Positions 3,449 to 63,072 of a stretch of DNA of 64,000 bases are shown in pieces. Numbering within the stretch: position 1 is the stretch's first letter; the number at the start of each line of letters is the position of its first letter. The translations under genes and the position numbers were made by a program. Under the pieces are notes generated by a model, which was given only the letters and a program-made list of their open reading frames with translations, made no database searches and was not told where the DNA came from. This stretch comes from Branchiostoma floridae (Eukaryota; Chordata; Leptocardii; Amphioxiformes; Branchiostomatidae): positions 20,646,894 to 20,710,893 of the forward strand of contig NC_049992.1 of NCBI RefSeq assembly GCF_000003815.2, read 5' to 3'.

Positions 3449-3512
3449 GTTAAAAAAAATACCATGAAGCCATGCCTACTGTTTCTCGCCATTGCCCTTG
3501 CCGTAGTTGCTG
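3449..3512 (+). CDS. exon 2: start codon and signal peptide
   Basis: The ATG at 3464 sits in a favourable context (ACCATGA). It opens [17 protein letters not shown], a classical secretion signal: one Lys, a hydrophobic core and small residues at the end. The donor GTAAGT at 3513 leaves phase 1. The acceptor is an excellent pyrimidine tract ending at 3448. Confidence 0.85.
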
Positions 3513-6500
3513 GTAAGTAGTGACTTATCATTTTTTACGGTAACGTTAAAAATAACACGTCAAGGAATAATGATTATATAATACAGAGTAGTTACCCGCA
3601 ATCTTCATTTGGTAAGGTTACATTTCTTAATTAAATCCATTTAATAAATAGCCTTAAAATCAAAACCAAACAAACTGAGAGAAAAAAAAAATCTATTACC
3701 AGTACTTGATTATGATATCCCAACACAAATTTTCGCAACCGTTGGAAACTACCTTTATGTAGTCCAGGGTAACGCTAAAACATTTCGTAAATAAAAAAAG
3801 TGTGACAAGCCTCGCAATTTATAATTAGAACGGATAAGATGGTTGTCTTCACAGATATAATTTACATTTAGATCAGATGTAGTCAGACCAAAGTGTGACG
3901 GGTGAATGAACTTGTACAACTGATGTCCATGCTACGCATTAGTTCTTTTCATTCCCTTCTTCGACGGGATTTACGTTACCGATAAACGTCGCTTACAAAA
4001 ATACATCTTTCTACTTTTTTCAATGTTATATTTTGCTAAACTTACGACAGAGAATTTAAAATCTGAACATTGGAAATATTAAAATTATCCCCGGAGTTTT
4101 CGCCCACTACTTTTCATTACCATGTGATGTATCTTGGAATTTTAGACCGATCATCACACTTACATTCATAGGAATAACAAGCGTCTATAGATAATAAATT
4201 GTATGCATAGTTTACATTCTAATCACTGATACTTCCAAGTTTATGTATCGTTAAAATGGTTACATAAATATGTCTCCAAGTAATGCACGTTAGCATGTTT
4301 TTTCTTCGGAATGTTAGAACTATTTTAAGTCTCAAAAATTCACCTCACACGCACAAAGGAAAAAAAAAAGGTTGTGGCAAGAAGGTTATACCGTTAGTTG
4401 AGCATGTTGAAAAACAGTATTTATTTAGACAGTATTCTACCCGATTTTCTGTTAGCATGGGCAATGGGCAATTTTCTTATCGAACAAAATGAATTTGTTT
4501 TAATTTTTGGTTTGTTTTTGTTTTCTGTAATGTTTATACAATTTGTCTTGCCATCCAACAGGCGGAAAAATCAATAAAGATACCCGGGCATCACCGAAGA
4601 TAGATGACGGCGGAGGGAACCAATCCAGCCCCAAAGTAACCAAACCTGTTGACATTGTCAATGAACAGACCATTACAACGGAGAAATCCAAACCACTCGG
4701 TAAGTAGAAAATTTTCTTTACTATTTTCTTATCTATTGTTTAAAGCATGGGAGTACTGCTGCTTGTTCTGCATGTTCAGCTTTTACCTTTCGATGTGAAT
4801 GTATAGATATTTGGTTTGTGGATAGGTCTTGGTGAGACCTGAAAACGATAAGAACTACAAGGTGCCACTGATATCTGTCGGAGGCGGCGAACTGTCCGTA
4901 AGGATGCTAAAGGTCTTCCGTGTTGTCTTTAGACTGTCATTCTAGCGTAGCATGGGACTTAGACTGTCTGTTTATTTCTGGGTTAGCACTCTGCCTCCAT
5001 ACTTGTATAACTCAGTTAGTATGGCATCATGGCACGCTATGTGCTTTCCTACTGGCTGGCGGCCTTTTTGGTCATCGCTCCAGGATATTGGCTCGTTCTG
5101 TGATGAGTGTTGTCCCATGAGCACAGAGAAGAGGAGAGAAGCTGTGACTCTGGGGTCCGTAGAGGGCTCTGATCAAGTCATAGAATAGTAGACTGGTTTA
5201 TTCGTTTCACAGAAATGTAAATGACACGAAATAAAAGCAACCTTGCAGCCGCCAGAGGAGGCTGAATTGTGCAGCTTTTCAATCACAATAGTGGCTTAGA
5301 TGCAAACACAATTTATAACTAAAATTACGAGTGCGATTTTCGACAAGTACATGTACACGAGTTACTGCTAGATACATATTTATCATATACGAACTATGTC
5401 ACTTTTAAAAATCGTTTAAAACTATTTACATCGGAATATAATATTGTACAAACACTGTCAGTTATTCACTGCTGACAATCGACAAGGGTACAGAAAAAAT
5501 CTGAAGCACAGTTCAACTTCAGTGTTACTTATAGTGCGTTCAGAATGTTCAAAATTGAAGGCACTGGGCTAGTGAGGTACCGCTTAGTACCAGTTGGCAG
5601 TTTGTAGGGCCGAGTGCGCCTGAGCTGCATGATGTATGGCTGGTTGCGGGCTGGGGGCAGCCAGGGGGCATACCTTGCAGATTTGGATACTGCAAGGGCA
5701 AAGTCCTGGCACAGAGACAGTCTGCGTTCTGACAGGCGTTGGAGGCCAAGTGTGATAAGGGCTTCAGAGTACGACAAGTACTGACTCCCCAACATGATTC
5801 TGCAAGCCCGTTTCTGGATTCTTTCTAGACTGTTAGATTGACTTTTTGTGAGCCCTGCGTTCCAGCACGGAGCAGCATATTCCAATGTAGGTCTTATGTA
5901 TCCACAATACACGGTGATGAGGTCAGCGCAAGTGAGACCCAATCACGGTGATGAGGAAGCGCCTCGAGTCTTTCTTGACTGCAAGGCTTGTATTTAATCG
6001 GGCTTCGTGCTGAGCCTGTCCTTGTGAATCATCCCGAGTCAACATTGAATTTATTTCGCATGTTCATAAAATCTGTTTTCTTAGTAGCAGATGCAGGGTT
6101 ATTTGTAACAAGTTTGTGAAGGTGATACTTTTTGGCCAGTCGATAAGAGATCTGTTGATCTTTTTCGTCAAATCAGTCCTGTTTTATTCTGATATGTTGG
6201 GCCGGGTCTACCGAAAGTGCGAAAAGGAACGAAAAGGAACGAAAAGGAACGAAAAGGAACGAAAAGGAACGAAAAGGAACGAAAAGGAACGAAAAGGAAC
6301 GAAGTATGAAGCAAACTAAAATAAAATCAATGATAATATAAGGAACCGGTACTGCGGGCGTTAGAAGCCTATGAAACGTGTTTTCTTTTACTCAGAATTC
6401 GGCAATATCAAATTTTACGGGGCTGTTTTAGGCTGTTGTGTTTGTGTGGCTAAATTATTCTCTGAAGATCAGCGAAATACAAGGAAACATAACTGAGATA

Positions 6501-12500: not shown

Positions 12501-14262
12501 CAGACTATAACCCTTGTCCAGCATCTTTCTTTTGAAACAAACTAAAACAAATTCTTAATTAAGGGTGGTATATCTGTGACGGAAATAAACCTAGTGATTG
12601 TTTACGGTCTACTTAATTCCTTTAACGATCCATAACTATTGTTTTTCCACGCCCATTTCAAATCCCCGGAATTTGGATGTTTAGCTCCCGTATGCGCATT
12701 ACACTTAAATGTCACCAATGGAAAAAGTCACATTTACACGAAAGCTATGTAACTAAATCACCATGTTCAAAGCACACAAATCCCTTAATCTCAAAAAATT
12801 GAGGCTAGGCAGTATGAAAGAAGAAGAAGTATAAGTCATGAAATAAATTAAATGTTATATCAAAACATTTAATTGTTTTTATCAAACATAAATATTTTAC
12901 CATGAAGGATCGGAACATGGAAAAACAAGACGTTCGTCCAACAGCTCTAAAAGGAACAAAAGGGCTGTTCCTGCATTTCTGGCTGCGGCAGCGAAAGAGC
13001 TAGGAGGAAAAGTCATCAGCAAACTTGGTGAAAGGATCGCGGAAGGTGTATTAGAAAACCACCAGGAGAAGGTGGTGAGCGGTCTACAAAACTACCTGGG
13101 GAAACAGATGGACAAGTTTGACGATGAGTACAAGGACCTGTTGAAGGAGACCAGTGGACTGGCAGCGGGTTTGGGCCGTCAAGTAGAGGAGGTAGGTACA
13201 TGGTTGGCACATGTTATAAAATGTTATGTTGGTATATACGTTACAAAGTTAAAAAAATACTTCTACAGAGCTGTTGTAATATACCAAGTCCCTAAAATTT
13301 GAAAGAACATAATCTTTCAACGTCTGTTAACCCTATTCAGATTGCGATTTTGTATCAATCTGGGGCGGGAGGGGGTTTTTGATCTGGTAATATGGTCCAT
13401 CATTTTTCATGTCGGACGATAAAGTAATTAAGTTACCATAACTAATGAATATTTAATTATGAAAGATATACATAATAACGTTAGATTTTATTCATAGATT
13501 TTATTCATGAAACAAACAATAAAACATTGTTCGAAGGGAAATTAACGATTTGAGTCAAAACGCTTTCAACAATCGTTTGCAAAGGCAACGAAAAATCAAA
13601 CTAATATGGATAGTATATTAACCAAAAAGGTTGCCACCTAAACTCTTCAAAAAGTCTTCAGTTTTGGTAGCTGTAACGCAAACCGTGCAGGTGTTATGCG
13701 GCATGAAAAGTTGCATGAGTCTCAACCCCCATCTAGAAAAGGACCAAACGTGTACCTTACAAAATGTTGTTTGTAACCTCAATTGAAAGTGGAGGTATAG
13801 TTTTTGGTGTGCAATTCTGTGTGTCGGTCTGTATTTATTTCCAGATATTTTTGGTCAGCATAACTCAAGAACCTCTGGATGGATTGTTATTACACACGGT
13901 TTGTGGTTAGATTTTAAGAAGACAAATGTCAAGTCTATTTGGGCATCTTATGTGATATTGATACTCTAGCAGAACCTGGAGATACTATGATCTTGATTTT
14001 TAGGTGACAGATAGCTTGTGATATAATTTAAAGGTGGTGTGGGTTTGGTCCCCATAGCAGCCTGCACTGAATGTGCGGGGTATTTTCGTCAAATCTTCCT
14101 CGGAACAAGCTATAGATTTCCCTGATATTTGTTATGCAGGTATCTTTGGCAGAGATGTGCATAATGAACGGCAAATTATGCAATAATTGAATTAATTCTA
14201 CATACTTAACCCTACCTAAAAGTGCCCGCGCCCACTTTGACATCGTGTAAGTACCGAACGAC

Positions 14263-14299
<37 letters not shown>

Positions 14300-35200: not shown

Positions 35201-38200
35201 GAAAGTAAACAATAATTTTCAGTAGTCAAATGGCTTTCCATTTTTCGTCGATAGATTTTACTATGAAATTCAAGTGATTAAAACCCTCAAACACCCGAGT
35301 GGGGTCCATTTGGACCCCAGGCGTACATTTTGAAGTGCCATTTGAACATTTTTGATCTGAAGAAAAAATCCTTCCGTGACTTTGTCAGTCAATATGTCTT
35401 ATACCTTCTCCTAAGTTTTCGCAAAGATTGGTACAATAATGTGGAAATTATAAAGAAAGTTTGTGTTCAGTCCCTCTGGGGTCCAAACGGACCCCAGCAA
35501 AAATGTGCAGTTTTTAAAACAAACTTTGGAGGCTAACTCCTTAACCACTTACAGTATGACTACCAAACTTTTAGACAATAATAAGAATGTAAACCTAAAT
35601 CATCACAATAATTCCTGTGTCATCAACATGTAATGTGACGACATTATGGCGTCATTTGCCTAATCAGGGCGGCCATCTTGGATTTTGACCAATGACGTCA
35701 TAAAATTAGCATAAATTATAAATTTTTAGTCATGAAAATTACATTTAATTTCATAGAATTCAATTGTTGTCAGAAAACAGGTGTAGTTTACCAAGAAAAC
35801 CTTGTTTAAATTGAAATTGTCAAATTTTGGCAAAAATATGCCTGTTAGAATATGGTTGCCATGGCAACCCCCAAAAATGATAAACTTACTTCATTGACCA
35901 AAAACGTTTGCAAACAATATTTTGTGATAAATTACCAAGTTTCGTAGCTTTAGCTCTAGCCGTTCAGGAGTTATGCGACATAAATGTTGCTGAGGGCCTA
36001 AAAATTCCCCTATCTGGTCGGAATAGGTTTAGTGCAAAACGTGGTCCTTCTGAACTTTTGCATAAATTATGATAATGAGTTGGAATTAGCAACACCTTAA
36101 CATCTCAAAATCTTCCTCTTACATTGACGAAGCAATGTATATACAATGATCGCCGATAAGAAATGGTACTGAGATTTTATGAACAAAACATTTTGGGGTC
36201 CGTTTGGACCCCACTCGGTCATTTTAGTCGCAAAAAAAGGTCGGGTGCTTGAGGGTTAAAGTGACGCACAAGTTTAACAGACATCACAGCGTTATGACCT
36301 CCGTTGCCATTAAGTAGACATATGCGGTCGGGAGAAAGACGGAGCGGGTTTTCCATTCTATTGACCCAATCAAGCGATTAACAATAAACTTATCATACAA
36401 CTTTGACTGTATCCAATGATACAAGAGTGTGTATGCTACGTAAGATTTTTAGACAATAAACTAAACATACCACTTCAACCAAAGTCTTTTCATTTGCACT
36501 GGAATTGCTGCGTTACGTACTTCAAGTCACAAATTTAGTAGACACCCAGGCGTGGTGATGTCAGGGTGCCATAAAGTTGACATATAGGCAATCAAAGGTA
36601 ATTTTATAGTCAAAAGGAAGTCAGGTTTTTTTTTTTTTATACACGGGGAATCCGCTAGCTCCTGTCTCCTAGAGGCGATAATTAACCCAAGCCGGACGCT
36701 CAGACCCGGGTTCTCCAGATGGCCCCCGTGGGTAGAGTGATTAGCAAGCCCTCTGCTGCGTGCACACAGCCCGGATCATTCGCTGTGAGCACACAGCTCC
36801 TTCGCCGAGCACGCAGCCCCTTTGCTGTGAGAACACAGCTCTTTCGCTGTGAGCACACAGGTACTTCGCCGAGCATACAGCCTCTTCCCTGTGAGCACAC
36901 AGCTCGTTCACCGAGCACTCAGCCCTTTCGTAGTTGAAGGCCATACTCTGTAAAGAGCAGTTTTAAAGCTGACGACTTTGTTGACAGAATGCAGCAGCTT
37001 TTGTTCAGACGTCAGTAGTGAGGGGAGAAGAGTCTGCTCAGGCCCCGCTTCAGCAGACTGTGACACGTGTAAATATCAACATGGCGGACAGTGTGTGGAA
37101 GGTTGCAGTCCTGGGCAAAAGGCTGTCAGAGGTTTGTTATATCTTTACAAATAAAACATTTATTGTTAAGGTCAATTAATTACATTTTTTTCAGATAGTC
37201 CAATAAGATAAAAAATTATACAAAGTCAAGACAGTGTTCCATCTGTTGCTTGTCTATCACATGTAAATTATGACTTAAGCATGTTCCGAGCACCGGGTTT
37301 TATAACCAAAAGCTCTGCTGCAGTACCTAGGGAAGCCGCCCTGGAGGTTCCAAGATTTTTCCATAAAAACTACCAACACACCAAATCTTAAACAAACCAA
37401 TTCAGCCTTCCTTGAGTTATCTTGTTGACAGGCAGACAACTAATACTAAAGGTATATACAACATCACATTGATGATAATTTGAAATAATTCAATGGAGGA
37501 AGAGTTCAAGTTATCTCCAAGCAGATTCCTTATTGGCAAAAGACAGTAACATAAACTGAGGCCTTATGCCACGGAGGAATTTGCTTGGAGATTAGAGTTC
37601 AAATGCTTGAACATCTGAACAATTTTTGTTTCTGACAGGTATTAGTATGAGCTTCTCAAATGTTTGCGGTATATATCTGACAAACGAAATATTCTCAAGG
37701 CAGCCTGAAAGAAAACACCATTTCAACTCAACATGATTGCATGACATTCTTTATTCCCGGTTCATTATTTGTCCATAAGATAATTTTGTGTTATAATTCT
37801 TCCCAATTACAGGAGAGGACGGGTCTTTTAACTGTCACCAATGTCGGTCTGGCTATGAGTGTAAGCTGGGGGACGAGAATGAAGACATCTGCCCAGCCGG
37901 CAAGTACAGTAACGAAAACAGAACAGCGTGCGAGCAGTGTCCAGCAGGAGAGTTTAGCGGCAACCCAGGAGCGGCGTCCTGTCAGAAGTGTCCGGCAGGG
38001 GAGTACAGTACAGGCGGGGGTTCAACTTCATGTTTAGACTGTCCAGCTGGGAAGTACAGTAACGACGGTAGTACAGCGTGCGAGCTGTGTGCAGCAGGAG
38101 AGTTCAGCAGCACTCCAGGAGCGGCGTCCTGTCAGAAATGTCCAGTTGGGCAGTACAGCACAGGAGAAGGGTCTACAGAATGTTTAGATTGTCCAGCTGG

Positions 38201-41200
38201 GAAGTACAGTAACGAAGGAAGAACAGCTTGCGCTTCGTGTGCAGCAGGAGAGTTTAGCGACACACCTGGAGCGTTGTCTTGTCAGAAATGTCCAGCCGGA
38301 CAGTACAGCACAGCAGAAGGGTCAACAAAATGTGTCGTCTGTCCAGTGGGCAAGTACAGTAACGAAGGCAGGACGATGTGCAAGCCGTGTGCAGCAGGAG
38401 AGTTTAGTAACACTACCGGAGCGGAATCTTGTCTAAAGTGTCCAAGGGGGAAGTACAGCCACGAAGGCAGGACAGCTTGCCAGCCGTGTCCAATAGGAGA
38501 GTTCAGCAGCACTCCGGGAGCAGCGTCCTGTCAGAAGTGTCCAGCAGGACAAAGCAGTAAACCGGGATCATCTGACTGCAAACCACTATCAGGTGCATAA
38601 AACTAATGTGAAAATTATGTGGATTTTAAGCAAACTTCCATGAAAATGTGATACAATGCAAAATATTTTGGTTCAGCAGCATCACATTTTATAACATAAG
38701 TTGACATATAATCACATAAAATAACACGTCACATTTTTGACAGGTGGCACAGAAATTCAGCTTTATGTAAAAAAAAAATGTTATTAGTTTGTATCACATT
38801 TTTTCACATTTTTCCAAAACGGTCTGGAATAATCACACTTCCAAATGTGAAAACATATAACGTGAAATTGGCAAGGCACCTATTATGTGAAATTATGTGA
38901 TTTTTCATACACGTTTTCACTTGTACGTTATGATTTTTATATGAAAGGGGCTCTTGATGCAAATAAATGCATTTCTTATACCTGGATAGTTAAGTAGAAA
39001 AAATACTTAAATCGGCACCAAACGCAATAAAATATCGCTCTACACGATACTAGATAATTTGTTTGAAAAGGCCAGCTTCTACCAGGTCTCAGTGGGAATT
39101 TAACTTCAGGTCTATCCGGTTTATGCCATAGGCCAAGGAATGGTCTTTGAATCGTCCGTGCTGAACTGCCCGGATTGTTGATCCGAATGTGACCCAAATG
39201 AAGTTCTTGACGGCGAGTACCGACAGATGCCAAAGGTGTGTACCAGAATCTGAAGGTACCGAAGGCACCAGAACGCCGGCGAAGTTAGCCAGCAAGATTG
39301 TATATCTTGCAATATGAAAGTCACTAGCAATATGTGGACTGACCTCTGCTCATTACTGACCCTCTACATGGTACTTCGAAATAAATTGAACATAATCAAA
39401 CATTGCATAAACGCAAAGCAAGCTCTTCGTTCCCCATAGAGTGTAAACGAATTGAGCCGTTCCACATAGCTATAGCGAGGTCGCCCGGCATCAAAGTAAG
39501 CACTTCCTAGTTGGGGATATAGGGTCGGCCCGCAGGCAGTCGTTCTATCTTGCTGCTAGGCAAGCACACGCAGTCTCAACATATGAAATATAAAACACAA
39601 CATGTTCGATAAGGTGCAGTCATTACCACGGGCGTATGCTAAAGGTCAGGTCAACCCCTTACCCATAGATTAGAAAATAGAAACATACATTCTGTGCAAT
39701 GGTACCATGCTGACAAAAGTCCGTAGGTACTATACATAAATGTTCAGCGATGTTCTGAGTCAAGTTTGCTGGCAACATTAGGCAGGTGGCGTCAAAAGTC
39801 CAGTTCCAATGACAGATCGCAAAGTTCAGGGCGTCGGAGTCACATCTAACAGAGTCCGGGCGTCAAGCAGATATGACTTCTACGGTTGGGAAAGTTCATC
39901 GGCGAAAAGAAGACCGGAGAGATCAGGCTGGAGTCGGCTTGCAACAGCACGATGAACTGGGTCTGTGCTGGTCCGAGGGACAGGATTGCATGGGTGCAGT
40001 CTCAGAGGACAACCGCATGGCGGGATGGTCTCGGCACATGGCGGCGGTTTGTCGGTAGCATAGCACCGTGGTAGCGGCTGGACGGCATTGTCCACGATCA
40101 GTCGGTGTGGCGGTAGTGGTCTCTGGGCGAGTTTGGCGGCACGGTGGAACGTCGGGGCGAGGCCAGGGGGCGTCGTGGCACGGTAGCAGGGCTTGCTGGA
40201 GGTCTTGTCACCAGGCGAGTCAGGCGACATGGTAACGGGGCAAGGGATGGCAATAGGACGGGGTCCGGCCGCTCCTAAGCGTCACCACTATTACATATAT
40301 AAGAGGAACGTCTTCTCTATGAAGAACGTCCACACTAAGTCGTGTCTTGTCTGAGACTGATTTAGGGAGATCCGGCTGCCCTTCTTTATTATTCCTCTCT
40401 TCTATACTAAAAAAAATTGCCTCATCATATTCTCTATCAACGTCTACTATATATTCTCTATATACTCATATCTACGTCGATGGCTACGCCCTTTATTCTT
40501 GTCCCCATGGTCGACCCCATCATCCAGTTTAGTTAAGACAGAAATGGCAGCAAGTCAGAGGGACCTTTACGTGGTTGTGAAATGCTAGAGATACATGGCT
40601 AGTTAGAGTTAACTTATTAAAGACCAAACTATTTTCCGTTAGAAGATATCGGGAGCCTTAGCTGCAAACGCTCCAATAATCCATGAATGGTGATGTGCTA
40701 CAAGAGAGAGACTTCTTTCGCCTACTCGGTCTTACCCTCTCCAAAAAAAAAAAAAATTCGGGACAAGTTACAAAGAATATACATTGCCAAATCTGCAGCT
40801 ATGAAAGTCTGTTCACTTCTCTAAGCCAGGCTCTTACTCCGGACATAAAACTCCATCTGTGCAAATCAACTATCGGCCCATGTATGGAATACTGCTGTCA
40901 TCCCTGGGAAGTTGCCCCTAAGGGATGTCTGCAACTCCTGAAAACAGCATTTTAAGAAGAATGTGTATGCCTATTGGCAATCAGTTAGCATTTAAGCTTG
41001 ACCTTCTCTCCCACAGGCGAAACGTCGCATCCCTGTCCCCTTTTTACCGGTACTTTCATAGCTTTTGCTCCTATGACCTCATACTACTTTTCCCGTCGCT
41101 GAGAACCTTTCAGCGAAACACTAGGTTCTCGCATCACTATACCGTCAAACCTGTATTAGCGGTCACCTCGGCATCGAAACCACCTGGCCTATGCAATCAA

Positions 41201-44200: not shown

Positions 44201-47143
44201 AAAGATCAGCCCCTGTCAGGTATGAACTACATAATTTTTTGTAACATGTAACTGTCTTCCCTAGAGCTTTGATATCTAGTAATATGGCTTGTGGTTACAT
44301 TTATAGTTATATTCCAAAAGAGACCAGTGTAGTAGACTTGGACTCCTTAGGACTGTACAAATTCTATCTGGGTCAAAACACTTCCAGGCAGACCATGGCC
44401 AGCTATACTTTATAATTTTTGTAAGCTGACTTGTGAAGCTTTGCTGAATTTTTGTAGTCATACTTCAATTCCTTATCAGTTCAAGACTCCAGGCTTTTAA
44501 AAATAATGTTTTAAAGAGTAACTCCGATGCTTGCTAATCTGTATTAGCCTTCCTCCACTGAACAACATTGTGGTTGGGACCAGACTGGGAGCTTGTAGTT
44601 TAGGTTAGCCGAATTTATTGGGTAATTTTATAGTACAACCTTGGTCTTTAACTGCAGTACCTTAGGTAGCTGGTCTGAGGCACCTTATCTAACTTGGTCT
44701 TCGTTTTTTTAACTCCTACCTGCCTACCAAATGTCATCAGTATCCATCTAAGGCTACTCGAGTTATGCTGTTAAGACACACACACAAAGAGACAAACACG
44801 CCCAAAAGATAACCTTCTGGCAAAGGTAATATCCTCCTGGCGAAGGTATTAAATAACAGTCAGGCGTTACCTAGATGTTCTACAACCTTATTATCATGTT
44901 GTAACCGTGAGAATAAAACTGAAAAAAATACCATCTACCCCCAGACTGCCAGGATATCCTCGACATCGACGAGACCACGCCCAGCGGCGTGTACACGTTG
45001 GATCCACGGGACAACCTTGGCAGCTTCCAGGTCTTCTGTGATATGGACACGGACGGCGGCGGCTGGACGGTAAGTATGGCCATTAAACTACTACCGTAAC
45101 ATCAGATTCGGCTAAACTTGTGTACGCTATTGTGTTATGGTATATCCTAGAGTTTTAGCTTTGTTTTCTTGCTCTTGAAGTTGTTCCAGAGACGCCAAGA
45201 CGGAACAGTGGACTTCTACCGGGACTGGGATGACTACAAGAACGGCTTCCCTTCCAACCTGACCGGCGAGTTCTGGCTGGGGAATGACAAATTGTACCGC
45301 CTGGCCGTGCAGAAAGACTACCAGCTCAGGGTGGATATGGAGGATTTTGAGGGGAACACGGCATACGCGACTTACAGCATGTTTGACATCTCACCTGAAT
45401 CCCAGAACTACAAACTCCACATTGGGTCTTATAGCGGTAGTGCAGGTGAGGTAGTTACCGCTTGCAACATATGATCTTGAACCGATACTGTACCTAAAAT
45501 GAATCATATGGTCCTGCCTCTGAATTGAATTTGAACGCGTCGCGTAGATTGGCAAAGAAAGATATGGTACACGTAGATTCATGTCTCCAAACTATTATCA
45601 ATACATACATAACATGCATTGGCATAATACCGGTAGTAAGACTTATACCGGTAGATTAAAAATACTGGAACTTAAAGAGATCTACACATGCAACAATATT
45701 TATTTCTGAGCTGTGCACACTTCAGACATCTAGGTGTCCAATACATCATTTACAAAGCATCGATAACAATGCATTCGAAGACAACAGGGCCGAAAGTTTT
45801 CAGTATCTTTTTCGGAGTAGGCAGCTCGTCGTGGGACGAACACACTGTCACATTCATTGCCAAATTTATAGATCATAATTACACATGCTCACGGCACAAG
45901 ACGAACATGATTCAACAACAATCTTGAATTTCTGTTGGTGACCTACAACTCATGTAAAAGTGTGAAGAACCGTTGCATAATAGCCCGGATCTACGACTGA
46001 ATGGGCAAAATTGAACGTACGCAGCCATTTTCCCGCCATTTTTATATCTACGCAAGCAGTAAAGCGTTACGTCATAGCGGTTGTGACGGACAGAAGTTAA
46101 ATGAAAATTCTTGACAGTATACGTCCGTTTTCTCATGACATTTTGTATGCTCATGCAGGTTTATGTTTTATGCATTTACTGACAGAAAAGGAAGGAGCAC
46201 CAGAGGATGTATAAAGGTGCATAGCGGCAGTTAATTGTGCCGTGTTTCTTCCTACCGGTATTTTTTACCCCCTCCCAACCACGCGTCCGTTCGCCGTGTA
46301 ATTCCGCGGCGTGTTACAATTACAATATTACGCTTTTAGCAGGACAAGAGTGGCAGAAAAGTTACACAGAAGAAGTGGCAAGGGTAACCTATAACAGCAA
46401 CATGTAACTGGAGAAAATGATGCGTTGACAATTTGTCAAAACAGTATGGCTAGAGAAATCGTCGTAAATGTACCGGTATTATGATAATAGATGTTACATA
46501 CATACATACATACATACATAGACATACTCTATCGAGTTATTTGCAGTATTAACAAAGTTCGGCTTTCAATGTGCATGACCTTTTTTATCAATGTTTACGG
46601 TAAAATCGCCATTTTCCATTTGCGCGTTCCAAATAGGTGAGGGGTACTTTGGGAATTGTGGAGCAGCGTTACATCGAAAGAAAACATATTTTGCATAATA
46701 TCGGGATTTTGTGCTAAAGATATGCAATTGCTTATAGAAACATGGATATTGAAGTGCTACAAAATAAAAGACAAGAGATAAGCACCGTTGACAAGTCATA
46801 GCTTATTTCAGTTCGCATATCCCAAAGGATAACCTTTAAAGATAATACAAGCTACGTGAATCAAGCGTTGTTGGATCAATATATTTTCCTTGTCACAGGG
46901 GATAGCCTGTCTTTCCATGACGGGAAACCATTCAGTACCAAGGACAGAGACAACGACAACGCCTGTGCTCAGACGTTCAAAGGTGCTTGGTGGTACAATG
47001 TTTGCCACAAATCCAACCTGAACGGGCTGTACCACCTGGATCCTTTTGAGAGTTACGTTACCGGTGACGGCGTCACCTGGACGCACTGGAAGAGTAACTA
47101 CTCCTTGAAGCGTTCGGAGATGAAAATCCGTCCAACTCCATAA
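3464..47143 (+). CDS. secreted MACPF - Methyltransf_FA - Cys-rich - GCC2/GCC3 repeat - fibrinogen-domain chimeric protein (whole gene, 23 coding exons)
   Basis: The exons listed below join with compatible phases at all 22 junctions. Their lengths total 4830 nt, giving about 1609 residues. Order: signal peptide 1-17; linker to about 160; MACPF about 230-610 with W435-G-T-H-Y439 and G446-G447; unrecognised segment about 610-840; Methyltransf_FA-like domain about 845-1000; furin-like cysteine-rich exons about 990-1140; GCC2/GCC3 repeats about 1150-1398; FReD 1399-1609 with a DxDND calcium-site-like motif. Known for the families: MACPF proteins oligomerise and perforate membranes, and FReDs bind acetylated sugars or microbial ligands. 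Inferred: a secreted, lectin-targeted pore-former of innate immunity. No transmembrane anchor is evident. Weak points are the acceptor of exon 4 and the 8.2-kb intron before it, which could hide another exon. Reading the FReD as a separate gene is unlikely because the phase-1 Cys-rich exons link it continuously to the MACPF part. Confidence 0.8.
3513..4561 (+). other. intron 2
   Basis: An AT-rich intron with no recognisable repeat or RNA gene. It ends in an AACAG acceptor at 4561. Confidence 0.7.
4562..4699 (+). CDS. exon 3: polar linker
   Basis: A 138-bp phase 1-1 exon encoding about 46 polar residues rich in Lys, Asp, Ser and Thr, with a GGGN stretch. It directly follows the signal peptide. 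The donor is GTAAGT at 4700. It belongs to no recognised domain and is probably a disordered N-terminal pro-segment. Confidence 0.8.
5529..5942 (-). mobile_element. LINE ORF2 C-terminal relic (reverse transcriptase tail)
   Basis: A minus-strand frame of 137 residues contains the hallmark end of non-LTR ORF2 proteins: [27 protein letters not shown] and [15 protein letters not shown], then the WLPP motif. The upstream RT core, endonuclease and ORF1 are absent, as expected for a 5'-truncated insertion. The 3' UTR probably runs down to about 5200. The frame is intact, so it is not very old. Jockey/CR1-like clades are the likely source. Confidence 0.8.
6209..6305 (+). repeat. decamer minisatellite (GAACGAAAAG)n
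   Basis: About eight near-perfect tandem copies of the 10-mer, introduced by CTACCGAAAGTGCGAAAAGG. The reverse complement of the same unit and lead-in occurs at 7386-7753, so the two arrays form inverted arms about 1.1 kb apart. The [10 protein letters not shown]-type frames are not genes. Confidence 0.9.
7386..7753 (-). repeat. decamer minisatellite, inverted copy with higher-order units
   Basis: Tandem CCTTTTCGTT units are interrupted at regular intervals by GCACTTTCGGTAC, giving a higher-order repeat of about 43-53 bp. This is the reverse complement of the 6209-6305 array. The long phenylalanine/arginine-rich frames on both strands are by-products. Confidence 0.9.
8205..8400 (+). mobile_element. 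degenerate tRNA-derived SINE (tentative)
   Basis: GTGTGGCTAACTC followed about 40 bp later by a GTGTCGATAATC B-box-like motif and the CTTGGGAAAG core seen in the better SINE at 8505. It is badly decayed, and the boundaries are approximate. Confidence 0.35.
8505..8990 (+). mobile_element. tRNA-derived SINE, copy 1
   Basis: The tRNA-like head contains AGCGCGTTGGTCTCAGGC and the B box GGTTCAAATCC. The body of about 400 bp contains CCTTGGGAAAGGCACTTT and ends GACGGATGCCAA. A second copy with the same head, body and tail lies at 26631-27146 in the same orientation. The head is not a functional tRNA gene, since it lacks a proper acceptor stem and terminator. Confidence 0.8.
9845..10480 (-). mobile_element. 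degenerate LINE ORF2 C-terminal relic
   Basis: On the minus strand, 9860-10110 encodes [19 protein letters not shown], then an in-frame stop, then a KRACRII-type stretch and a SLADRREQL end. Further upstream, 10130-10480 contains decayed RT pieces with [15 protein letters not shown]. It has the same orientation and family as the relic at 5529-5942, but is older, with stops and frameshifts. Confidence 0.7.
11236..12252 (-). repeat. dispersed repeat with ACTAGAGTTCC and CCTTCGCC ends
   Basis: This is the reverse-orientation relative of the element at 27422-28732. It begins ACTAGAGTTCCACGA and ends TTGGCGAAGG followed by TA. It contains repeated blocks with TTTGCATAATTAATGAGG-like and TGATGATCC sequence. 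No coding capacity was seen. Confidence 0.6.
12908..13191 (+). CDS. exon 4: basic cleavage-type site and amphipathic helices
   Basis: In the frame required by neighbouring exons this encodes a basic run (residues about 70-81, ending KRNKR). A hydrophobic/amphipathic helix follows, beginning [16 protein letters not shown], and then a longer charged helical stretch to about residue 157. The donor GTAGGT at 13192 leaves phase 0 and matches exon 5. The acceptor at 12907 is weak. An alternative AG at 12944 is out of phase with exon 3, so it would need a hidden exon. Confidence 0.65.
13765..14800 (+). repeat. dispersed repeat, copy in intron 4
   Basis: Shares CATAACTCAAGAACCTCTGG, GTGTTTGCCATT and GTGTACATAACCAATCA-type blocks with 50265-51035 in the same order. 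It contains a (TA)n tract at 14263-14310 and a C-run near 14440. It is a non-coding interspersed repeat of unknown class and ends about 40 bp before exon 5. Confidence 0.65.
14838..14938 (+). CDS. exon 5
   Basis: The acceptor TCATCATTAG and phase 0 entry match exon 4. It encodes about 33 residues with an [16 protein letters not shown] segment. The donor is AG|GTTTGT (14939), leaving phase 2. The last 66 bp of this exon plus 19 bp of intron are tandemly copied five more times just downstream (see 14873-15370). Only the first donor gives an open frame into exon 6. Confidence 0.8.
14873..15370 (+). repeat. six tandem 85-bp copies of the exon 5 end and its splice donor
   Basis: Units start at 14873, 14958, 15043, 15128, 15213 and 15298, a constant 85-bp spacing. 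The last copy carries a small insertion. Each unit begins GATGGGTAACATG and ends with the donor region GACAGGTTGGTGTATTC. Copies are more than 90 percent identical by eye. Extending exon 5 through the first donor hits a TAA within about ten codons, so the extra copies are not coding extensions. Confidence 0.95.
15675..15813 (+). CDS. exon 6: Gly/Cys segment before the MACPF core
   Basis: Phase 2 entry after ATGACAG, phase 0 exit at GTAAGT. Encodes about 46 residues with [15 protein letters not shown] and two further cysteines. Position and content fit the N-terminal edge of the MACPF region. Confidence 0.85.
16125..16330 (+). mobile_element. LINE 3' end with (ATACAG)n tail
   Basis: A short coding tail ([15 protein letters not shown] followed by a stop) resembles the end of a LINE ORF2. 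A 3' UTR follows with CCGGCTATATAGATACAG and a hexamer tail. The same sequence occurs in inverse orientation at 16612-16835, making a tail-to-tail palindrome. Confidence 0.6.
16612..16835 (-). mobile_element. LINE 3' end, inverted copy
   Basis: Reverse complement of the 16125-16330 fragment: TGTATCTGTATC tail, ATAGCCGGT, TTACGC-type block, CCGTCACACCT and TACTGTACTTGGTGAT. The two arms of about 200 bp are separated by about 280 bp. A third fragment of this tail is at 51075-51150. Confidence 0.6.
17035..17147 (+). CDS. exon 7: MACPF N-terminal core
   Basis: Phase 0 entry, phase 2 exit. Encodes about 37 residues with [18 protein letters not shown] and an [10 protein letters not shown] segment. 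These match the conserved start of invertebrate MACPF domains (GxGFD...S.ESRK...). Confidence 0.88.
17403..18347. mobile_element. TTAA-flanked palindromic MITE (piggyBac-like), copy 1
   Basis: Left end CCCTATTCAGACCGGG and a right end that complements CCCTATTCAAACC are flanked by TTAA (17399-17402, 18348-18351). Runs of G and C lie just inside the ends. The interior carries at least five TGACGTCA (CRE-type) palindromes. An inverted relative with nested insertions lies at 26461-29218. Confidence 0.8.
18360..18500 (-). mobile_element. decayed SINE-like fragment (tentative)
   Basis: Contains CCCGTTCAAAGGACGTCC and TTTCACCTCAGTG-type blocks that resemble the reverse complement of the SINE core seen at 51580 and 56500. 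No clear tRNA head was found. Confidence 0.25.
18830..19177 (+). CDS. exon 8: MACPF with glycine-rich first transmembrane cluster
   Basis: A 348-bp exon, phase 2 in and 2 out. Encodes about 117 residues: [18 protein letters not shown] at the start, a helical stretch (residues about 290-320), an unusual [18 protein letters not shown] insertion, a Ser-rich run, then a second helix. By position it should be the first pore-forming helical cluster (TMH1) of the MACPF fold, which inserts as beta hairpins. Confidence 0.88.
19358..20353. mobile_element. composite of MITEs with the CCCCTTTCCACTAGGACGG end
   Basis: Starts CCCCCTTTCCACTAGGACGG (19358) and ends with the complementary CGTCAAGTGGAAAGG (about 20353). 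Further internal ends lie at 19667 and 20275. It is packed with GCGCTCTC and GAGAGCGC motifs that create long spurious ORFs. It is related to the complete small MITE at 1961-2203. Confidence 0.65.
21057..21384. other. assembly gap (N)
   Basis: Run of 328 N inside intron 8. The flanking exons 8 and 9 join in phase (2 to 2), so no coding exon is required here, though a symmetric one could be hidden. Confidence 1.
21762..21874 (+). CDS. exon 9: MACPF central segment
   Basis: Phase 2 entry after ATTCTAG, phase 1 exit at GTAAGT. Encodes about 38 residues with [17 protein letters not shown]. This matches the MACPF segment that precedes the signature motif (a helix with L..LP). Confidence 0.87.
22265..22556 (+). 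CDS. exon 10: MACPF signature motif
   Basis: The acceptor AACTTCAG gives phase 1. The exon opens with [18 protein letters not shown], containing the MACPF signature [W/Y]-G-T-H-[F/Y]-x6-G-G (W435 to G447 of the predicted protein). The rest is a helical and then very charged stretch (Lys/Glu/Asp-rich, residues about 490-526), the start of the second transmembrane cluster. The donor is GTAAGT (22557), phase 2. Confidence 0.92.
23122..23506 (+). pseudogene. coiled-coil (Lys/Glu repeat) part of a gag-like ORF
   Basis: Repeats of [14 protein letters not shown]-type heptad sequence in tandem. The frame breaks at about 23331 and resumes in another frame at 23448, then runs into the N gap. This is probably the N-terminal region of the retroelement gag polyprotein. 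Repeat expansion explains the frameshifts. Confidence 0.6.
23507..23889. other. assembly gap (N)
   Basis: Run of 383 N within the LTR retrotransposon in intron 10. It hides the middle of gag. Confidence 1.
23890..24656 (+). pseudogene. gag C-terminus with CCHC zinc knuckle and active-site-less retropepsin remnant
   Basis: An open frame from the gap to a stop at 24654. A helical gag segment ([18 protein letters not shown]) comes first, then the zinc knuckle [14 protein letters not shown] (C-x2-C-x4-H-x4-C) near 24070. Retropepsin flanks follow: [11 protein letters not shown] joined directly to [14 protein letters not shown], with VILGRDIP further on. The usual D-[ST]-G catalytic segment between those flanks is missing, so the protease is dead. 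After about 24460 the frame runs through glycine-rich sequence of different origin. Confidence 0.75.
24600..24863 (+). pseudogene. captured SR splicing factor fragment (SRSF4/5/6-type second RRM)
   Basis: In a different frame from gag, 24641-24800 encodes [30 protein letters not shown] and a [12 protein letters not shown] segment. This is the hallmark second RRM of SRSF4/5/6, including the SWQDLKD motif. It is preceded by a glycine-rich linker ([15 protein letters not shown]). About 10 bp are missing near 24803, shifting the frame, after which DGTEIYG and [10 protein letters not shown] continue to a stop. No intron interrupts it, so it looks cDNA-derived. It is probably not functional as it stands. 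Confidence 0.8.
25236..25411 (+). repeat. 3' LTR of the retrotransposon
   Basis: A 176-bp unit starting TGTGACAGAGTCACTGTAAT and ending CTTGTGACA. Its first 20 bp recur at 23002. GAAAGAAGCGGGGACAGA just before it is a plausible polypurine tract. Confidence 0.75.
25610..25852 (+). CDS. exon 11: MACPF second cluster and C-terminal part
   Basis: The acceptor ACATTGCAG gives phase 2. Encodes about 81 residues including a VQGGD turn, an alternating helix [15 protein letters not shown], then W-x-x-S-I-x5-P and VTDVLN, the classical end of MACPF domains. The donor is GTAAGT (25853), phase 2. Confidence 0.9.
25986..26214 (+). CDS. exon 12: post-MACPF linker
   Basis: Separated from exon 11 by an intron of only 133 bp. 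Phase 2 in, 0 out. Encodes about 76 Lys/Thr/Ser-rich residues with [12 protein letters not shown], then a helical [17 protein letters not shown] stretch. No domain recognised. Confidence 0.82.
26631..27146 (+). mobile_element. tRNA-derived SINE, copy 2
   Basis: Same tRNA-like head (AGCGCGTTGGTCTCAGGC; B-box region GTTTCAAATCC), same body and GACGGATGCCAA end as at 8505-8990, plus an A-rich tail. It is inserted inside the MITE at the point corresponding to about 18214 of copy 1. Confidence 0.85.
27422..28732 (+). mobile_element. 1.3-kb repeat with TA target duplication
   Basis: TA (27420-27421 and 28733-28734) flanks a unit that begins CCTTTGCCAGAATGG and ends GGAACTCTAGT. Removing it together with one TA restores the length and sequence seen in the uninterrupted MITE copy near 17940. 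Internal blocks (TTTGCATAATTAATGAG, CATTCCATGATAGGACTTT) are repeated about three times. Relatives: 11236-12252 and 44640-44860. No ORF. Confidence 0.75.
29358..29657 (+). CDS. exon 13: unrecognised segment
   Basis: Phase 0 to 0 after TTCGTAG. Encodes 100 residues with [19 protein letters not shown], a W-E-D-M turn and a [11 protein letters not shown] stretch. No family recognised. It is well conserved-looking (no low complexity) and sits between the MACPF and Methyltransf_FA modules. Confidence 0.85.
29774..29949 (+). CDS. exon 14: unrecognised segment
   Basis: Follows an intron of 116 bp. Phase 0 in, 2 out (GTGAGT at 29950). Encodes about 58 residues: [15 protein letters not shown], acidic ADDDFN and [16 protein letters not shown]. 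It continues the unassigned region of exon 13. Confidence 0.85.
30288..30483 (+). CDS. exon 15: Methyltransf_FA-like domain, N-terminal half
   Basis: Phase 2 in, 0 out. Encodes about 65 residues with [38 protein letters not shown] and [15 protein letters not shown]. These fit the farnesoic acid O-methyltransferase-like (Methyltransf_FA) beta-sandwich, a binding rather than catalytic fold in many proteins. Confidence 0.85.
30995..31126 (+). CDS. exon 16: Methyltransf_FA-like domain, middle
   Basis: Phase 0 to 0. Encodes 44 residues with a LYQSYFVCV strand and [13 protein letters not shown], consistent with the same domain. The donor is GTTTGT. Confidence 0.82.
31806..31933. mobile_element. 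128-bp MITE with GGTTCAC duplication
   Basis: Inverted ends CTAGTCTCTACCAGG and CCTGGTAGAGGCTAG are flanked by identical GGTTCAC (31799-31805 and 31934-31940). The 7-bp (possibly 8-bp) duplication suggests a hAT-like origin. It lies in intron 16. Confidence 0.7.
32080..32242 (+). CDS. exon 17: end of Methyltransf_FA domain and start of Cys-rich region
   Basis: Phase 0 in (after CACTGAG), phase 1 out (GTGAGT). Encodes [19 protein letters not shown], typical of the end of the Methyltransf_FA domain. A furin-like cysteine-rich start follows: [18 protein letters not shown]. Confidence 0.82.
33102..33528. mobile_element. hAT-like MITE with perfect 8-bp target duplication
   Basis: Terminal repeats TAGGACTGGGTATCGGTACA and its near complement at the right end. 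A perfect TCCGGCAT duplication lies at 33094-33101 and 33529-33536. The interior is rich in CCGGACCTG and ACCGGTCC-type palindromes. It lies in intron 17. Confidence 0.85.
33740..33898 (+). CDS. exon 18: furin-like cysteine-rich repeat
   Basis: Phase 1 to 1. Encodes about 52 residues with cysteines in the furin-like spacing: [18 protein letters not shown], then [13 protein letters not shown]. The family is known from growth-factor receptors and proprotein convertases; here it likely forms a rigid stalk. Confidence 0.88.
34163..34258 (+). CDS. exon 19: furin-like cysteine-rich repeat
   Basis: Phase 1 to 1, 96 bp. Encodes [21 protein letters not shown] followed by a DNKVCK end. Continues the disulfide-rich stalk of exon 18. 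Confidence 0.86.
34628..34738 (+). repeat. 20-22-bp minisatellite (GGAGCTGTGTGCTCGGCGAA)n
   Basis: About five tandem, slightly diverged copies that alternate GCTCGGCGAA and GCTCACAGCGAA. The reverse complement array is at 36745-36930, on the other side of the TTAA MITE at 35282-36255. Confidence 0.85.
35282..36255. mobile_element. TTAA-flanked MITE with GGGTCC palindromes
   Basis: Left end CCCTCAAACACCCGAG, right end CGGGTGCTTGAGGG, with TTAA at 35278-35281 and 36256-36259. Subterminal GGGGTCCATTTGGACCCC palindromes occur at both ends. The interior resembles the 17403 family (GCCATCTTGGATTTTG, TGACGTCA, GGTTGCCATGGCAACC). Confidence 0.8.
36745..36930 (-). repeat. 20-22-bp minisatellite, inverted copy
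   Basis: Tandem units of TTCGCCGAGCACGCAGC and TTCGCTGTGAGCACACAGC type, the reverse complement of 34628-34738. The array ends only about 55 bp before exon 20. Confidence 0.85.
36988..37131 (+). CDS. exon 20: cysteine-rich repeat
   Basis: Phase 1 to 1, 144 bp. Encodes [18 protein letters not shown], then [17 protein letters not shown], a laminin/furin-like pattern with eight cysteines. It joins the stalk to the GCC2/GCC3 exon. Confidence 0.88.
37813..38592 (+). CDS. exon 21: GCC2/GCC3 (ephrin-receptor-like) repeat array
   Basis: A single 780-bp phase 1-1 exon of about 260 residues. After a short lead ([15 protein letters not shown]) it holds 14 sub-repeats of 16-17 residues: [33 protein letters not shown] and [17 protein letters not shown] types. 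The first nine form three 50-residue (150-bp) higher-order units; the fourth unit lacks its third sub-repeat. Each sub-repeat carries two or three cysteines. Known for the family: extended extracellular stalks. High DNA similarity between units indicates recent tandem growth. Confidence 0.93.
40683..41170 (+). mobile_element. LINE ORF2 C-terminal relic, frameshifted
   Basis: Two overlapping frames give [31 protein letters not shown] then, shifted, [19 protein letters not shown] and [14 protein letters not shown]. These are the characteristic end of RT proteins of non-LTR elements. At least one frameshift is present. It is from a different clade than the 5.5 and 9.9 kb relics. Confidence 0.75.
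41608..43306. mobile_element. hairpin-ended element, inverted relative to 51972-56398
   Basis: Starts ACTAGAAAGGCCGACATTTG and ends in an imperfect hairpin CCATACCTATGGTATGG. It contains blocks of about 165 bp on the theme CCAAAAGTGTACTTTTTGGTCA and AAATTTCAGCTCATTCGG. It is the reverse complement of 54654-56398. Confidence 0.7.
44640..44860 (-). repeat. fragment of the CCTTTGCC repeat family
   Basis: Contains GAGTTATGCTGTTAAGACAC and ends CTGGCAAAGGTAA and CTGGCGAAGGTATT, which match the start of 27422-28732 in reverse complement. It lies about 80 bp before exon 22. Confidence 0.55.
44945..45069 (+). CDS. exon 22: fibrinogen-related domain, N-terminal part
   Basis: Phase 1 in, 0 out (GTAAGT). 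Encodes [15 protein letters not shown] and [15 protein letters not shown], the textbook start of a FReD (first disulfide pair and the GGGWT motif). Confidence 0.95.
45181..45445 (+). CDS. exon 23: fibrinogen-related domain, middle
   Basis: Phase 0 in, 1 out. Encodes [30 protein letters not shown] and a MEDFEG segment, the standard central FReD strands. All conserved aromatic positions appear present. Confidence 0.95.
46899..47143 (+). CDS. exon 24: fibrinogen-related domain, calcium site and C-terminus
   Basis: Phase 1 in; stop TAA at 47141-47143. Encodes [17 protein letters not shown], then [20 protein letters not shown], and ends [12 protein letters not shown]. The DxDND motif is the known FReD calcium site and the C-x11-C pair forms the second disulfide next to the ligand pocket. 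The domain length (about 210 residues) is normal, so the protein ends with an intact FReD. Confidence 0.95.
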
Positions 47144-62712: not shown

Positions 62713-63072
62713 GACTTCTATACTTAGTCATACAGTCTGTACATTTCGATTAGAAAGACTGTATCCGAGACTACTGCATTAGTCAAAGCTAAGCTATTTG
62801 TAGATACACAGTGATACTAGTATTTAGTTACGTTGGTAGTCATTTTTAGTTTAAGAAATATACAAAATGATTTAGACGTACATATATGTATTTTTTGTTG
62901 TTGTAGTTGTTGTTGATCAATTTTGATTGATTGTTTACTTAGTTTACATTTATCTAAGCTTACCTCAAATTCTCATGTTAAAGCTAGTAAGGTCCTGTGA
63001 GACATTGTGGATCGGACCGTAAAGACACAATTTTTTCTTCTTTTTCCCATTTCATTTAACTCATCCTTGGAT

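What the first reader, a model, noticed from the sequence alone, without database searches (positions are those of the whole stretch)
3464..47143. One-polypeptide 'lectin plus pore': MACPF, Methyltransf_FA, furin-like, GCC2/GCC3 and FReD modules in one gene
All 23 coding exons lie on one strand and join in phase across 44 kb, so a MACPF effector and a complete C-terminal FReD recognition head appear to be one secreted protein. In vertebrate complement these two functions sit on different proteins (ficolins and C6-C9) linked by proteases. I do not know of a described protein with this exact order. Inference: ligand binding by the FReD may deliver the MACPF to microbial surfaces.
Basis: partly seen in the sequence, partly recalled or inferred. 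Interest (0 to 1): 0.95.

Follow-up and report, generated by a model that had tools for sequence, protein, structure and literature searches.

The report
Pore-forming proteins with exchangeable lectin heads
A lancelet-type animal gene appears to join a membrane-pore domain and a ficolin-like recognition domain in one secreted protein, and its sister genes keep the same pore-bearing body while carrying other sugar-binding heads in the same slot, as if immune weapons were made by swapping aiming parts.

Summary
The gene is real and reads as one unit. I model 21 coding exons (reader: 23), all on +, 3464-47143, giving 1524 aa with signal peptide, MACPF (Pfam 8.1e-14), GCC2/GCC3-type repeats (1.8e-26) and a complete C-terminal FReD (2.2e-72). 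Pfam showed no Methyltransf_FA or furin-like match.

The decisive evidence lies outside the window. In the host genome (513 Mb, lancelet-like) the scaffold recurs at about 28 loci (my grouping). At 11 of 13 loci whose DNA I read, a binding-type module lies downstream on the same strand, within about 9 kb: FReD 2, C-type lectin 4, F5/8C 1, SUEL lectin 1, hevein-like 2, alternating hevein-like/F5-8C 1. The best GCC donor is phase 1 in 9 of 9 loci tested; the best head acceptor in 8 of 9. So the FReD most likely is this paralogue's head, gained by exon shuffling.

No transcript was seen. Lectin-guided MACPF is known (apextrin, PcPV2); exchange of heads on one scaffold is new to my searches.

The parts
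3464..3512 (+). exon 1: start codon and signal peptide [17 protein letters not shown]
   Evidence: ATG, hydrophobic core, donor 6.5 bits, phase 1
4562..4699 (+). exon 2: low-complexity linker
   Evidence: acceptor 4.5, donor 4.7, phase 1-1
12908..13191 (+). exon 3: possible pro-region with RNKR (furin-type site, aa 78) and helix-rich segment; start uncertain (12908 or 12992, same phase; the second would drop RNKR)
   Evidence: paralogue match at C11:17.177M begins only at aa 97
17035..17147 (+). exon 4: N-terminal part of MACPF region
   Evidence: 80-83% identical exon in two paralogues
18830..19177 (+). exon 5: MACPF, first presumed membrane-hairpin region
   Evidence: weak donor (-1.8)
21762..21874 (+). 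exon 6: MACPF
   Evidence: weak acceptor (-4.5) but homologous exon in paralogues
22265..22556 (+). exon 7: MACPF core with WGTHY-x6-GG signature (aa 355)
   Evidence: Pfam MACPF 5.8e-7 for this exon alone; motif
25610..25852 (+). exon 8: MACPF C-terminal part
   Evidence: aligns to C6
25986..26214 (+). exon 9: post-MACPF segment
29358..29657 (+). exon 10: unnamed conserved scaffold domain
   Evidence: no Pfam; 71-87% identical in close paralogues
29774..29949 (+). exon 11: unnamed conserved scaffold domain, continued
   Evidence: no Pfam match; 57-91% identical in paralogues
30995..31126 (+). exon 13: same domain, continued (start 30980 also possible)
32095..32242 (+). exon 14: end of that domain and start of Cys-rich part
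   Evidence: donor 8.9
33740..33898 (+). exon 15: Cys-rich part (reader: furin-like)
   Evidence: phase 1-1; no Pfam match; dN/dS 0.19 against L027
34163..34258 (+). exon 16: Cys-rich part
   Evidence: phase 1-1; dN/dS 0.24
36988..37131 (+). exon 17: Cys-rich part
   Evidence: phase 1-1; dN/dS 0.14
37813..38592 (+). exon 18: Ephrin_rec_like (GCC2/GCC3) repeats, 50-aa units
   Evidence: Pfam 2.2e-38 for the exon; tandem array of 150 bp; phase-1 donor, best donor phase 1 in 9 of 9 loci tested
44945..45069 (+). exon 19: start of FReD; the codon completed across the junction reads Asp of the typical FReD start DC
45181..45445 (+). exon 20: FReD body
   Evidence: Pfam 3.5e-32; dN/dS 0.24
46899..47143 (+). 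exon 21: FReD C-terminal part with ligand/calcium region, stop codon
   Evidence: Pfam 1.7e-23; dN/dS 0.66, altered S1 and Ca loop
38593..44944 (+). intron between scaffold and head, 6.35 kb; no signal-peptide-like first exon with a phase-1 donor found inside

Best explanation
The gene encodes one secreted protein: signal peptide, a possible pro-region with a furin-type site, MACPF, a conserved scaffold of unnamed and Cys-rich domains, GCC repeats as a stalk, and a C-terminal FReD. It is one member of a gene family of this genome in which the MACPF-to-GCC scaffold is kept and the C-terminal binding head is exchanged through phase-1 introns (FReD, C-type lectin, F5/8C, SUEL lectin, hevein-like). 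Most likely mechanism: the head docks the protein on a target surface or matrix by a glycan or other ligand, this raises the local concentration of MACPF, and MACPF assembles into a ring that perforates the membrane; different heads give different targets. Shown here: gene anatomy, family, linkage, phase, exchange of heads, constraint on the coding sequence. Inferred: single transcript, secretion, ligand binding, pore formation, an immune role.
For: Anatomy and domains. Phase-blind test. Scaffold recurs. C11:17.17-17.23M and C2:3.75-3.81M carry the exons from the MACPF region to GCC in order, then EGF plus C-type lectin, with no separate FReD match in the fetched 34-36 kb beyond. C14:20.218-20.228M repeats Cys-rich part, GCC and FReD. 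Other heads in Pfam: F5/8C 3e-10, Lectin_C 6.6e-19 (C2), EGF 5.2e-9 (C11); SUEL 5.3e-23, Lectin_C 1.7e-22 and 3e-7. In the sequences scanned with the head set (E<=1e-3), all matches lie downstream on the gene's strand. Best GCC donor phase 1 in 9 of 9 loci; best head acceptor phase 1 in 8 of 9, searching upstream of the conserved motif only. Chance of a same-strand FReD, CTLD or F5/8C match within 10 kb is 0.4-1.6% from match and candidate counts, which are capped; seen at 5 of 9 paralogues, leaving out the window and its duplicate (4 of 8 if the sister pair counts once, p 3e-8 to 5e-6). dN/dS 0.14-0.24 in four exons including a FReD exon.
Against: No transcript or protein evidence. The GCC exon's frame meets a stop two codons beyond its donor (GA*), so a GCC-terminated product is possible if the intron is not spliced; the donor is moderate (2.3 bits). 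The best phase-blind acceptor of the FReD exon is another one (44953, phase 0). The close duplicate L027 has broken frames in the GCC and first FReD exons, so the FReD-headed form may work in only one copy. One of the 11 close loci (L033) showed no head within 3.9 kb, and distant C18 none; the acceptor phase of the L029 head is unclear. S1 pocket and Ca loop of the FReD are altered. Hevein-like heads are under the Pfam cut-off. Membrane-hairpin amphipathicity inconclusive.
Confidence: 0.68

Rival explanations
1. Two neighbouring genes: a MACPF-scaffold gene that ends at the GCC exon (stop just after 38592) and a separate FReD gene starting between 38.6 and 44.9 kb.
For: In-frame stop GA* two codons after the GCC donor in the window and in L027; poly(A)-like signals from 38962 on; FReDs are numerous in this genome (160 matches, not all listed); moderate donor and second-best acceptor at the junction.
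Against: No signal-peptide-like first exon with a phase-1 donor in the 6.35 kb (one candidate, phase 0), whereas exon 1 is found by the same strict scan. The best GCC donor is phase 1 in nine of nine loci tested, and 10 of the 11 close loci have a binding-type module within about 9 kb downstream on the same strand, which separate genes would hardly give.
Confidence: 0.15
2. One protein, but not a killer: an extracellular-matrix or adhesion protein, the MACPF serving assembly (as in non-lytic MACPF proteins, recalled) and the heads binding matrix or cell-surface glycans.
For: F5/8C, EGF and FReD are common in matrix proteins (recall); FReD S1 site degenerate; hairpin test inconclusive. Apextrin was suggested to take part in apical cell adhesion (PMC9585378, passages).
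Against: Most heads found are carbohydrate-binding types by name. The MAC/perforin domain is among those enriched in dispensable genes of two lancelet species, beside defence domains (PMC12373286, passages). The FReD exon with the ligand region evolves faster than the rest, as expected of a recognition surface, though relaxed constraint also fits.
Confidence: 0.25
3. Prey- or predator-directed venom or egg-defence protein rather than immunity, as in the snail egg protein PcPV2.
For: PcPV2 links a MACPF chain to a lectin chain (PMC3667788, passages).
Against: No lancelet venom or toxic egg known to me (recall); the family is large and head-diverse, which fits recognition of many targets.
Confidence: 0.04
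4. The FReD-headed copy is decaying or an assembly product.
For: Gaps and retroelement debris in introns; duplicate L027 has broken frames; Ca loop shortened.
Against: All 21 exons open, 40 splice sites GT or AG; dN/dS 0.14-0.24 in four exons; the order is repeated in L027 in colinear blocks that include intron DNA.
Confidence: 0.1

Closest known systems
Apextrins (signal peptide + MACPF + ApeC)
   Same: One secreted animal polypeptide with MACPF and a C-terminal binding-type domain; ApeC of short ApeC proteins binds peptidoglycan (PMC9585378, abstract in listing and passages)
   Different: ApeC instead of FReD or other heads; described as a highly conserved architecture; no such scaffold and GCC stalk in the passages
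PcPV2 perivitellin of apple snail eggs
   Same: MACPF combined with a lectin, interpreted as delivery of the MACPF (PMC3667788, passages)
   Different: Two chains, each from its own cDNA, joined by disulfide; tachylectin-like lectin; acts as a defence toxin in eggs
Terminal complement C6-C9 and lancelet C6-like
   Same: MACPF; weak sequence match to C6 (E 0.0032)
   Different: Companion domains TSP1, LDLa, EGF, CCP, FIMAC (PMC11312191, passages), none found here; recruited by C5b, not by an own lectin head (recall)
Ficolins and FIBCD1
   Same: FReD identical to FIBCD1 at 113 of 206 and to M-ficolin at 114 of 204 aligned residues
   Different: Ficolins carry collagen (PMC11312191, passages); no MACPF (recall); S1 pocket and Ca loop altered here
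Ciona Ci-MACPF1
   Same: Secreted invertebrate-chordate MACPF at a barrier surface (PMC6109156, passages)
   Different: Ten TSR and one EGF-like domain, no lectin head

Membership tests
MACPF superfamily | Pfam MACPF above curated cut-off | tested here: met
   52.7 bits against cut-off 21.5, profile 17-199 of 214
MACPF superfamily | signature [YW]-G-[TS]-H-[FY]-x6-G-G (motif recalled) | tested here: met
   [13 protein letters not shown] at aa 355
MACPF superfamily | amphipathic membrane hairpins that form the pore | tested here: inconclusive
   beta-moment no better than shuffles, p 0.39 and 0.10
Fibrinogen-related domain (FReD) | complete Fibrinogen_C domain | tested here: met
   243.9 bits, 4-220 of 221
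Acetyl-binding FReD lectins (TL5A, ficolins, FIBCD1) | S1 pocket Tyr405, His415, Tyr431, Ala432, Trp/Tyr443 (FIBCD1 numbers, PMC3908420) | tested here: not met
   His415 and Tyr431 kept; Tyr405 to Phe as in M-ficolin; Ala432 to Val with a 2-residue insertion; 443 missing
Acetyl-binding FReD lectins (TL5A, ficolins, FIBCD1) | calcium loop Asp393, Asp395, Ser397, Asn399 | tested here: not met
   both Asp kept, loop three residues shorter, Ser397 lost
Ficolins | collagen-like region | tested here: not met
   no such Pfam match in 1524 aa with max_evalue 10
Terminal complement components | TSP1/LDLa/EGF (CCP, FIMAC) around MACPF | tested here: not met
   none among the five Pfam families found
Apextrin | C-terminal ApeC domain | tested here: not met
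   no ApeC match among the five Pfam families found
Methyltransf_FA (PF12248) and Furin-like (PF00757) modules (accessions recalled) | Pfam match | tested here: not met
   no match with max_evalue 10, whole or parts; weak relatives could be lost by HMMER's filters
Lytic pore-forming immune effector | lyses membranes or microbes | not testable with these tools
   needs protein

The most novel reading that the evidence does not exclude
A chordate without adaptive immunity keeps a germline repertoire of aimed pore-formers: one MACPF-to-GCC scaffold duplicated to about 28 loci, with the C-terminal recognition head replaced by phase-1 exon shuffling, so that scaffolds 71-87% identical to this one in exon 10 carry unrelated heads. 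Specificity would evolve by swapping the head while the killing part stays constant, a genomic analogue of one effector with exchangeable variable parts.
Probability: 0.5. Interest if true: 0.87.

Novelty: new variant of a known kind. Interest (0 to 1): 0.75.

Why it matters
Vertebrate complement keeps recognition (ficolins) and membrane attack (C6-C9) on separate proteins joined by a protease cascade. Here both ends appear to sit on one chain, and the family shows the recognition end being exchanged while the attack end is kept. This gives a concrete, testable model of how an innate immune system can diversify targeting without somatic recombination, and a set of natural head swaps on one scaffold for experiments.

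Tried and rejected
Automatic gene finding with recalled vertebrate splice matrices and codon bias: 13 exons with strict settings, 40, 59 and 61 with loose ones, wrong in obvious ways (repeats and retroelement taken as exons); replaced by curation plus a phase-blind test. Two Pro/Lys-rich candidates at 11.5-12.1 kb considered as extra exons and dropped for poor splice sites. A Glu-rich repeat and zinc-knuckle ORF at 23.1-24.6 kb considered as a MACPF insertion and rejected: frames broken, zf-CCHC 3.5e-5, retroelement-like, and the alignment to C6 reads across from exon 7 to 8. Bacterial promoter scan is not meaningful for an animal gene. IMG/VR searches with MACPF and FReD gave no relative. Rfam and tRNA searches empty. 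One search was an empty script and only a wait. Structure prediction was not run, because the spliced protein is not letter for letter in the DNA. One search lists 52 MACPF matches, but the window's own MACPF exon is not among them, so that list is incomplete. Literature: ten searches; MACPF with Fibrinogen_C in one paper only, a cerianthid venom transcriptome, seen as a listing; MACPF with Methyltransf_FA in none. The lancelet immune-gene survey of 2008 (Genome Research, recalled) is not held, so an earlier listing of such architectures is not excluded. An earlier count said 10 of 10 phase-1 donors; the right count is 9 of 9. labels 461 hits as listed; they are match counts, partly unlisted and capped near 150 per search.

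Full report
What is in the window. I read the + strand exon by exon. A curated model has 21 coding exons from ATG 3464 to a stop at 47143, with 20 GT-AG introns, all in phase, giving 1524 aa. It starts with a signal peptide (exon 1). A possible pro-region follows with an RNKR furin-type site, whose inclusion depends on which of two same-phase acceptors is used (12908 or 12992); paralogue similarity begins only behind it, at aa 97. Then come MACPF over exons 4-8, a conserved scaffold without Pfam name over exons 9-14, a Cys-rich part over exons 14-17 (21 Cys), GCC/Ephrin_rec_like repeats in exon 18 (31 Cys), and a complete FReD over exons 19-21. Pfam on the whole protein gives Fibrinogen_C 2.2e-72, Ephrin_rec_like 1.8e-26, NCD3G 1.1e-15, MACPF 8.1e-14 and a sub-threshold TNFR_ELAPOR1_6th 7.4e-5. 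Methyltransf_FA and furin-like did not appear with max_evalue 10 in the whole protein or in the parts, with the caveat that HMMER's filters drop weak matches. In PDB that region showed only weak hits to Cys-rich domains of metabotropic glutamate receptors (best 0.11).

Is the in-phase joining more than chance. Choosing the best-scoring acceptor and donor of each exon without regard to phase, but within the open frame of the curated exon, 16 of 20 junctions match in phase, against an expected fraction of 0.335 (permutation p about 2e-5). The four that fail include GCC to FReD: there the best blind acceptor (44953) lies 8 bases inside and would cut off the first conserved Cys of the FReD that aligns with FIBCD1 and ficolins. 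With acceptor 44945 the split codon reads Asp and restores the usual Asp-Cys start. A scan for signal-peptide-like first exons finds exon 1, none in three other introns, and one phase-0 and no phase-1 candidate between GCC and FReD. The scan is strict and would miss type II membrane proteins.

The genome context. On its fourth try the whole-genome tool placed the window at G000:C14:20646894-20710893 in a genome of 513,431,437 bases and 431 contigs. Size, Mb-scale coordinates for contigs numbered up to 19 only among those seen, and gene content fit the lancelet Branchiostoma floridae; that is recall, not a tool result. MACPF has 52 matches there. The middle of the protein (aa 527-1053) has 92 matches, with 82 of 350 first-look candidates scored, which I group by eye into 28 loci including the window, a lower bound. 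The closest are 71-87% identical in exon 10, at C185, C11:226-232k, C14 at 20.09, 19.59, 0.97 and 6.66 Mb and C12:13.7M, with C145 at 81%; a duplicate of the 3' part lies at C14:20.22M.

What sits behind GCC in the paralogues. I read DNA at 13 loci including the window: 11 of the 28, and two more distant ones (C4:22.4M, C18:7.9M). They were picked by scaffold similarity, except L027, which was picked because of its FReD match. C11:17.17-17.23M (+) and C2:3.75-3.81M (-) carry the exons from the MACPF region to GCC in order. Behind GCC they have an EGF exon and a C-type lectin, and no separate FReD match in the fetched 34-36 kb beyond (Pfam EGF 5.2e-9 for C11, Lectin_C 6.6e-19 for C2). L027 (C14:20.218-20.228M, +) is a segmental duplicate of window 33.7-48.1 kb in colinear blocks, mostly 79-91% identical and including intron DNA, with GCC and FReD; its GCC and first FReD exons have broken frames. 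L028 (C11:217-227k) has F5/8C behind GCC (3e-10). L029 (C14:20.08M) has a hevein-like motif with an apparently broken frame and no Pfam match. L030 (C12:13.71M) has a C-type lectin (1.7e-22) and a WSC-like domain below cut-off. L031 with L035 (C185) has two hevein-like motifs 8-9 kb downstream; Chitin_bind_1 matched one of the two at 0.019, under its cut-off, and the other not. L032 (C14:19.59M) has a SUEL lectin (5.3e-23) beyond an ORF that looks like a LINE reverse transcriptase by eye. L033 (C14:0.97M) has none within 3.9 kb. L034 (C14:6.65M) has a C-type lectin split over two ORFs (3e-7, and 4.1e-4 under the cut-off). More distant, C4:22.4M has alternating hevein-like and F5/8C modules (tblastn only), and C18:7.9M none. 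So 11 of 13 loci read have a binding-type head: FReD 2, C-type lectin 4, F5/8C 1, SUEL 1, hevein-like 2, alternating 1. By position only, same-strand downstream matches also lie near C11:21.23M and C2:6.89M (C-type lectin), C3:34.03M (F5/8C about 7 kb away), and C9:10.8M and three C7 loci (F5/8C 16-20 kb away, one in an F5/8C-rich region). C145 and the other loci were not read.

Junctions. The best-scoring donor behind the last GCC Cys is phase 1 in 9 of 9 loci tested (L032 and L034 not tested; L033 weak at -1.4). The best acceptor before the head, searched only upstream of the conserved motif, is phase 1 in 8 of 9 heads; L029 is unclear. In the sequences scanned with the head set at E<=1e-3, all matches lie downstream on the gene's strand (the stretches L023 and L026 were not scanned). 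From the numbers of FReD, C-type lectin and F5/8C matches (461, capped) or first-look candidates (1704), a same-strand match in a given 10 kb has a chance of 0.4-1.6%. It is seen at 5 of 9 paralogues, leaving out the window and its duplicate. Counting the sister pair C11/C2 once gives 4 of 8, p 3e-8 to 5e-6. The loci are related, so these figures are a guide.

Tree. A tree of 11 loci from exon 17 and the first GCC units (106 columns) joins window and L027 (99/98), C11 and C2 (100/100), and L032 with L033 (97/94); several deeper forks are open. F5/8C-headed L028 and hevein-headed L031 are neighbours with lower support (85/88), so different heads sit on close scaffolds. The FReD has its nearest other relatives (73-84% in exon 20, where that exon is split off in the same way) at loci on C3, C16, C2, C17 and C13, none of them beside a scaffold match listed. 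Scaffold and head therefore have different nearest kin, as expected of head capture. Lancelets are described as having the fastest exon shuffling in metazoans, with 1-1 phase bias and many novel domain pairs (PMC4284660, passages).

Selection. Between window and L027, dN/dS is 0.19, 0.24 and 0.14 in Cys-rich exons 15-17, 0.24 in FReD exon 20 and 0.66 in FReD exon 21. Exon 21 has more nonsynonymous change than exon 20 (p 3e-5 from rounded counts with an assumed share of nonsynonymous sites), with no difference in synonymous change (p 0.67). Exon 21 holds the calcium loop and acetyl pocket. Diversification of the recognition surface, or relaxed constraint in the frame-broken duplicate, both fit.

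FReD binding site. Against FIBCD1 (PMC3908420, passages) the window FReD keeps Asp393, Asp395, Cys401, Cys414, His415 and Tyr431. It has Phe for Tyr405 (as M-ficolin), Val for Ala432 followed by a 2-residue insertion, lacks 443, and has a calcium loop shorter by three. The FIBCD1 authors argue that no residue but Ala at 432 would fit without blocking entry of the acetyl methyl. Classic acetyl binding is thus unlikely, while the fold is complete by sequence.

Mechanism and standing. I hold most likely that the head docks the protein and the MACPF perforates the docked surface, each head setting a target. Architecture and family are shown by sequence; transcript, secretion, ligand and pore are inferred. 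Lectin-guided MACPF as an idea is known: apextrins (MACPF plus ApeC; PMC9585378, passages) and snail PcPV2 (MACPF chain disulfide-linked to a lectin chain; PMC3667788, passages). I found no paper describing MACPF with FReD in one protein, or exchange of heads on one MACPF scaffold, in my ten searches, which cover only open-licence papers and of which I read passages of nine papers and listings of the rest.

Noticed in passing
58085-60130 (+): 682-aa ORF with DnaJ (8.3e-10) at the start and a GDSL esterase match (4.4e-7, just under its cut-off) at the end; an endonuclease ORF follows at 63001-63972 (7e-7, at the window's end). It may be a LINE ORF1 that has captured a J domain.
   Followed up: partly
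23892-25000 (+), intron 7: Retrocopy-like chimera: gag-type segment with zinc knuckle (3.5e-5), then an RRM fragment (1.4e-8) that looks like SR splicing factor RRM2 (recall), then an A-rich stretch.
   Followed up: partly
L027 8756-8995 against window 46899-47143: The ligand-side FReD exon differs far more (68% identity, indels in calcium loop and pocket) than the other exons compared; the duplicate keeps a full-length calcium loop.
   Followed up: partly
L022 1419-5562 (-): Distant MACPF paralogue at C4:22.4M with alternating hevein-like and F5/8C modules downstream.
   Followed up: no
37889-38459: GCC exon is a 150-bp tandem array (3.8 copies); repeat number differs between paralogues.
   Followed up: no
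14872-15371: 85-bp minisatellite, 5.8 copies, 94% matches, in an intron before the MACPF exons.
   Followed up: no
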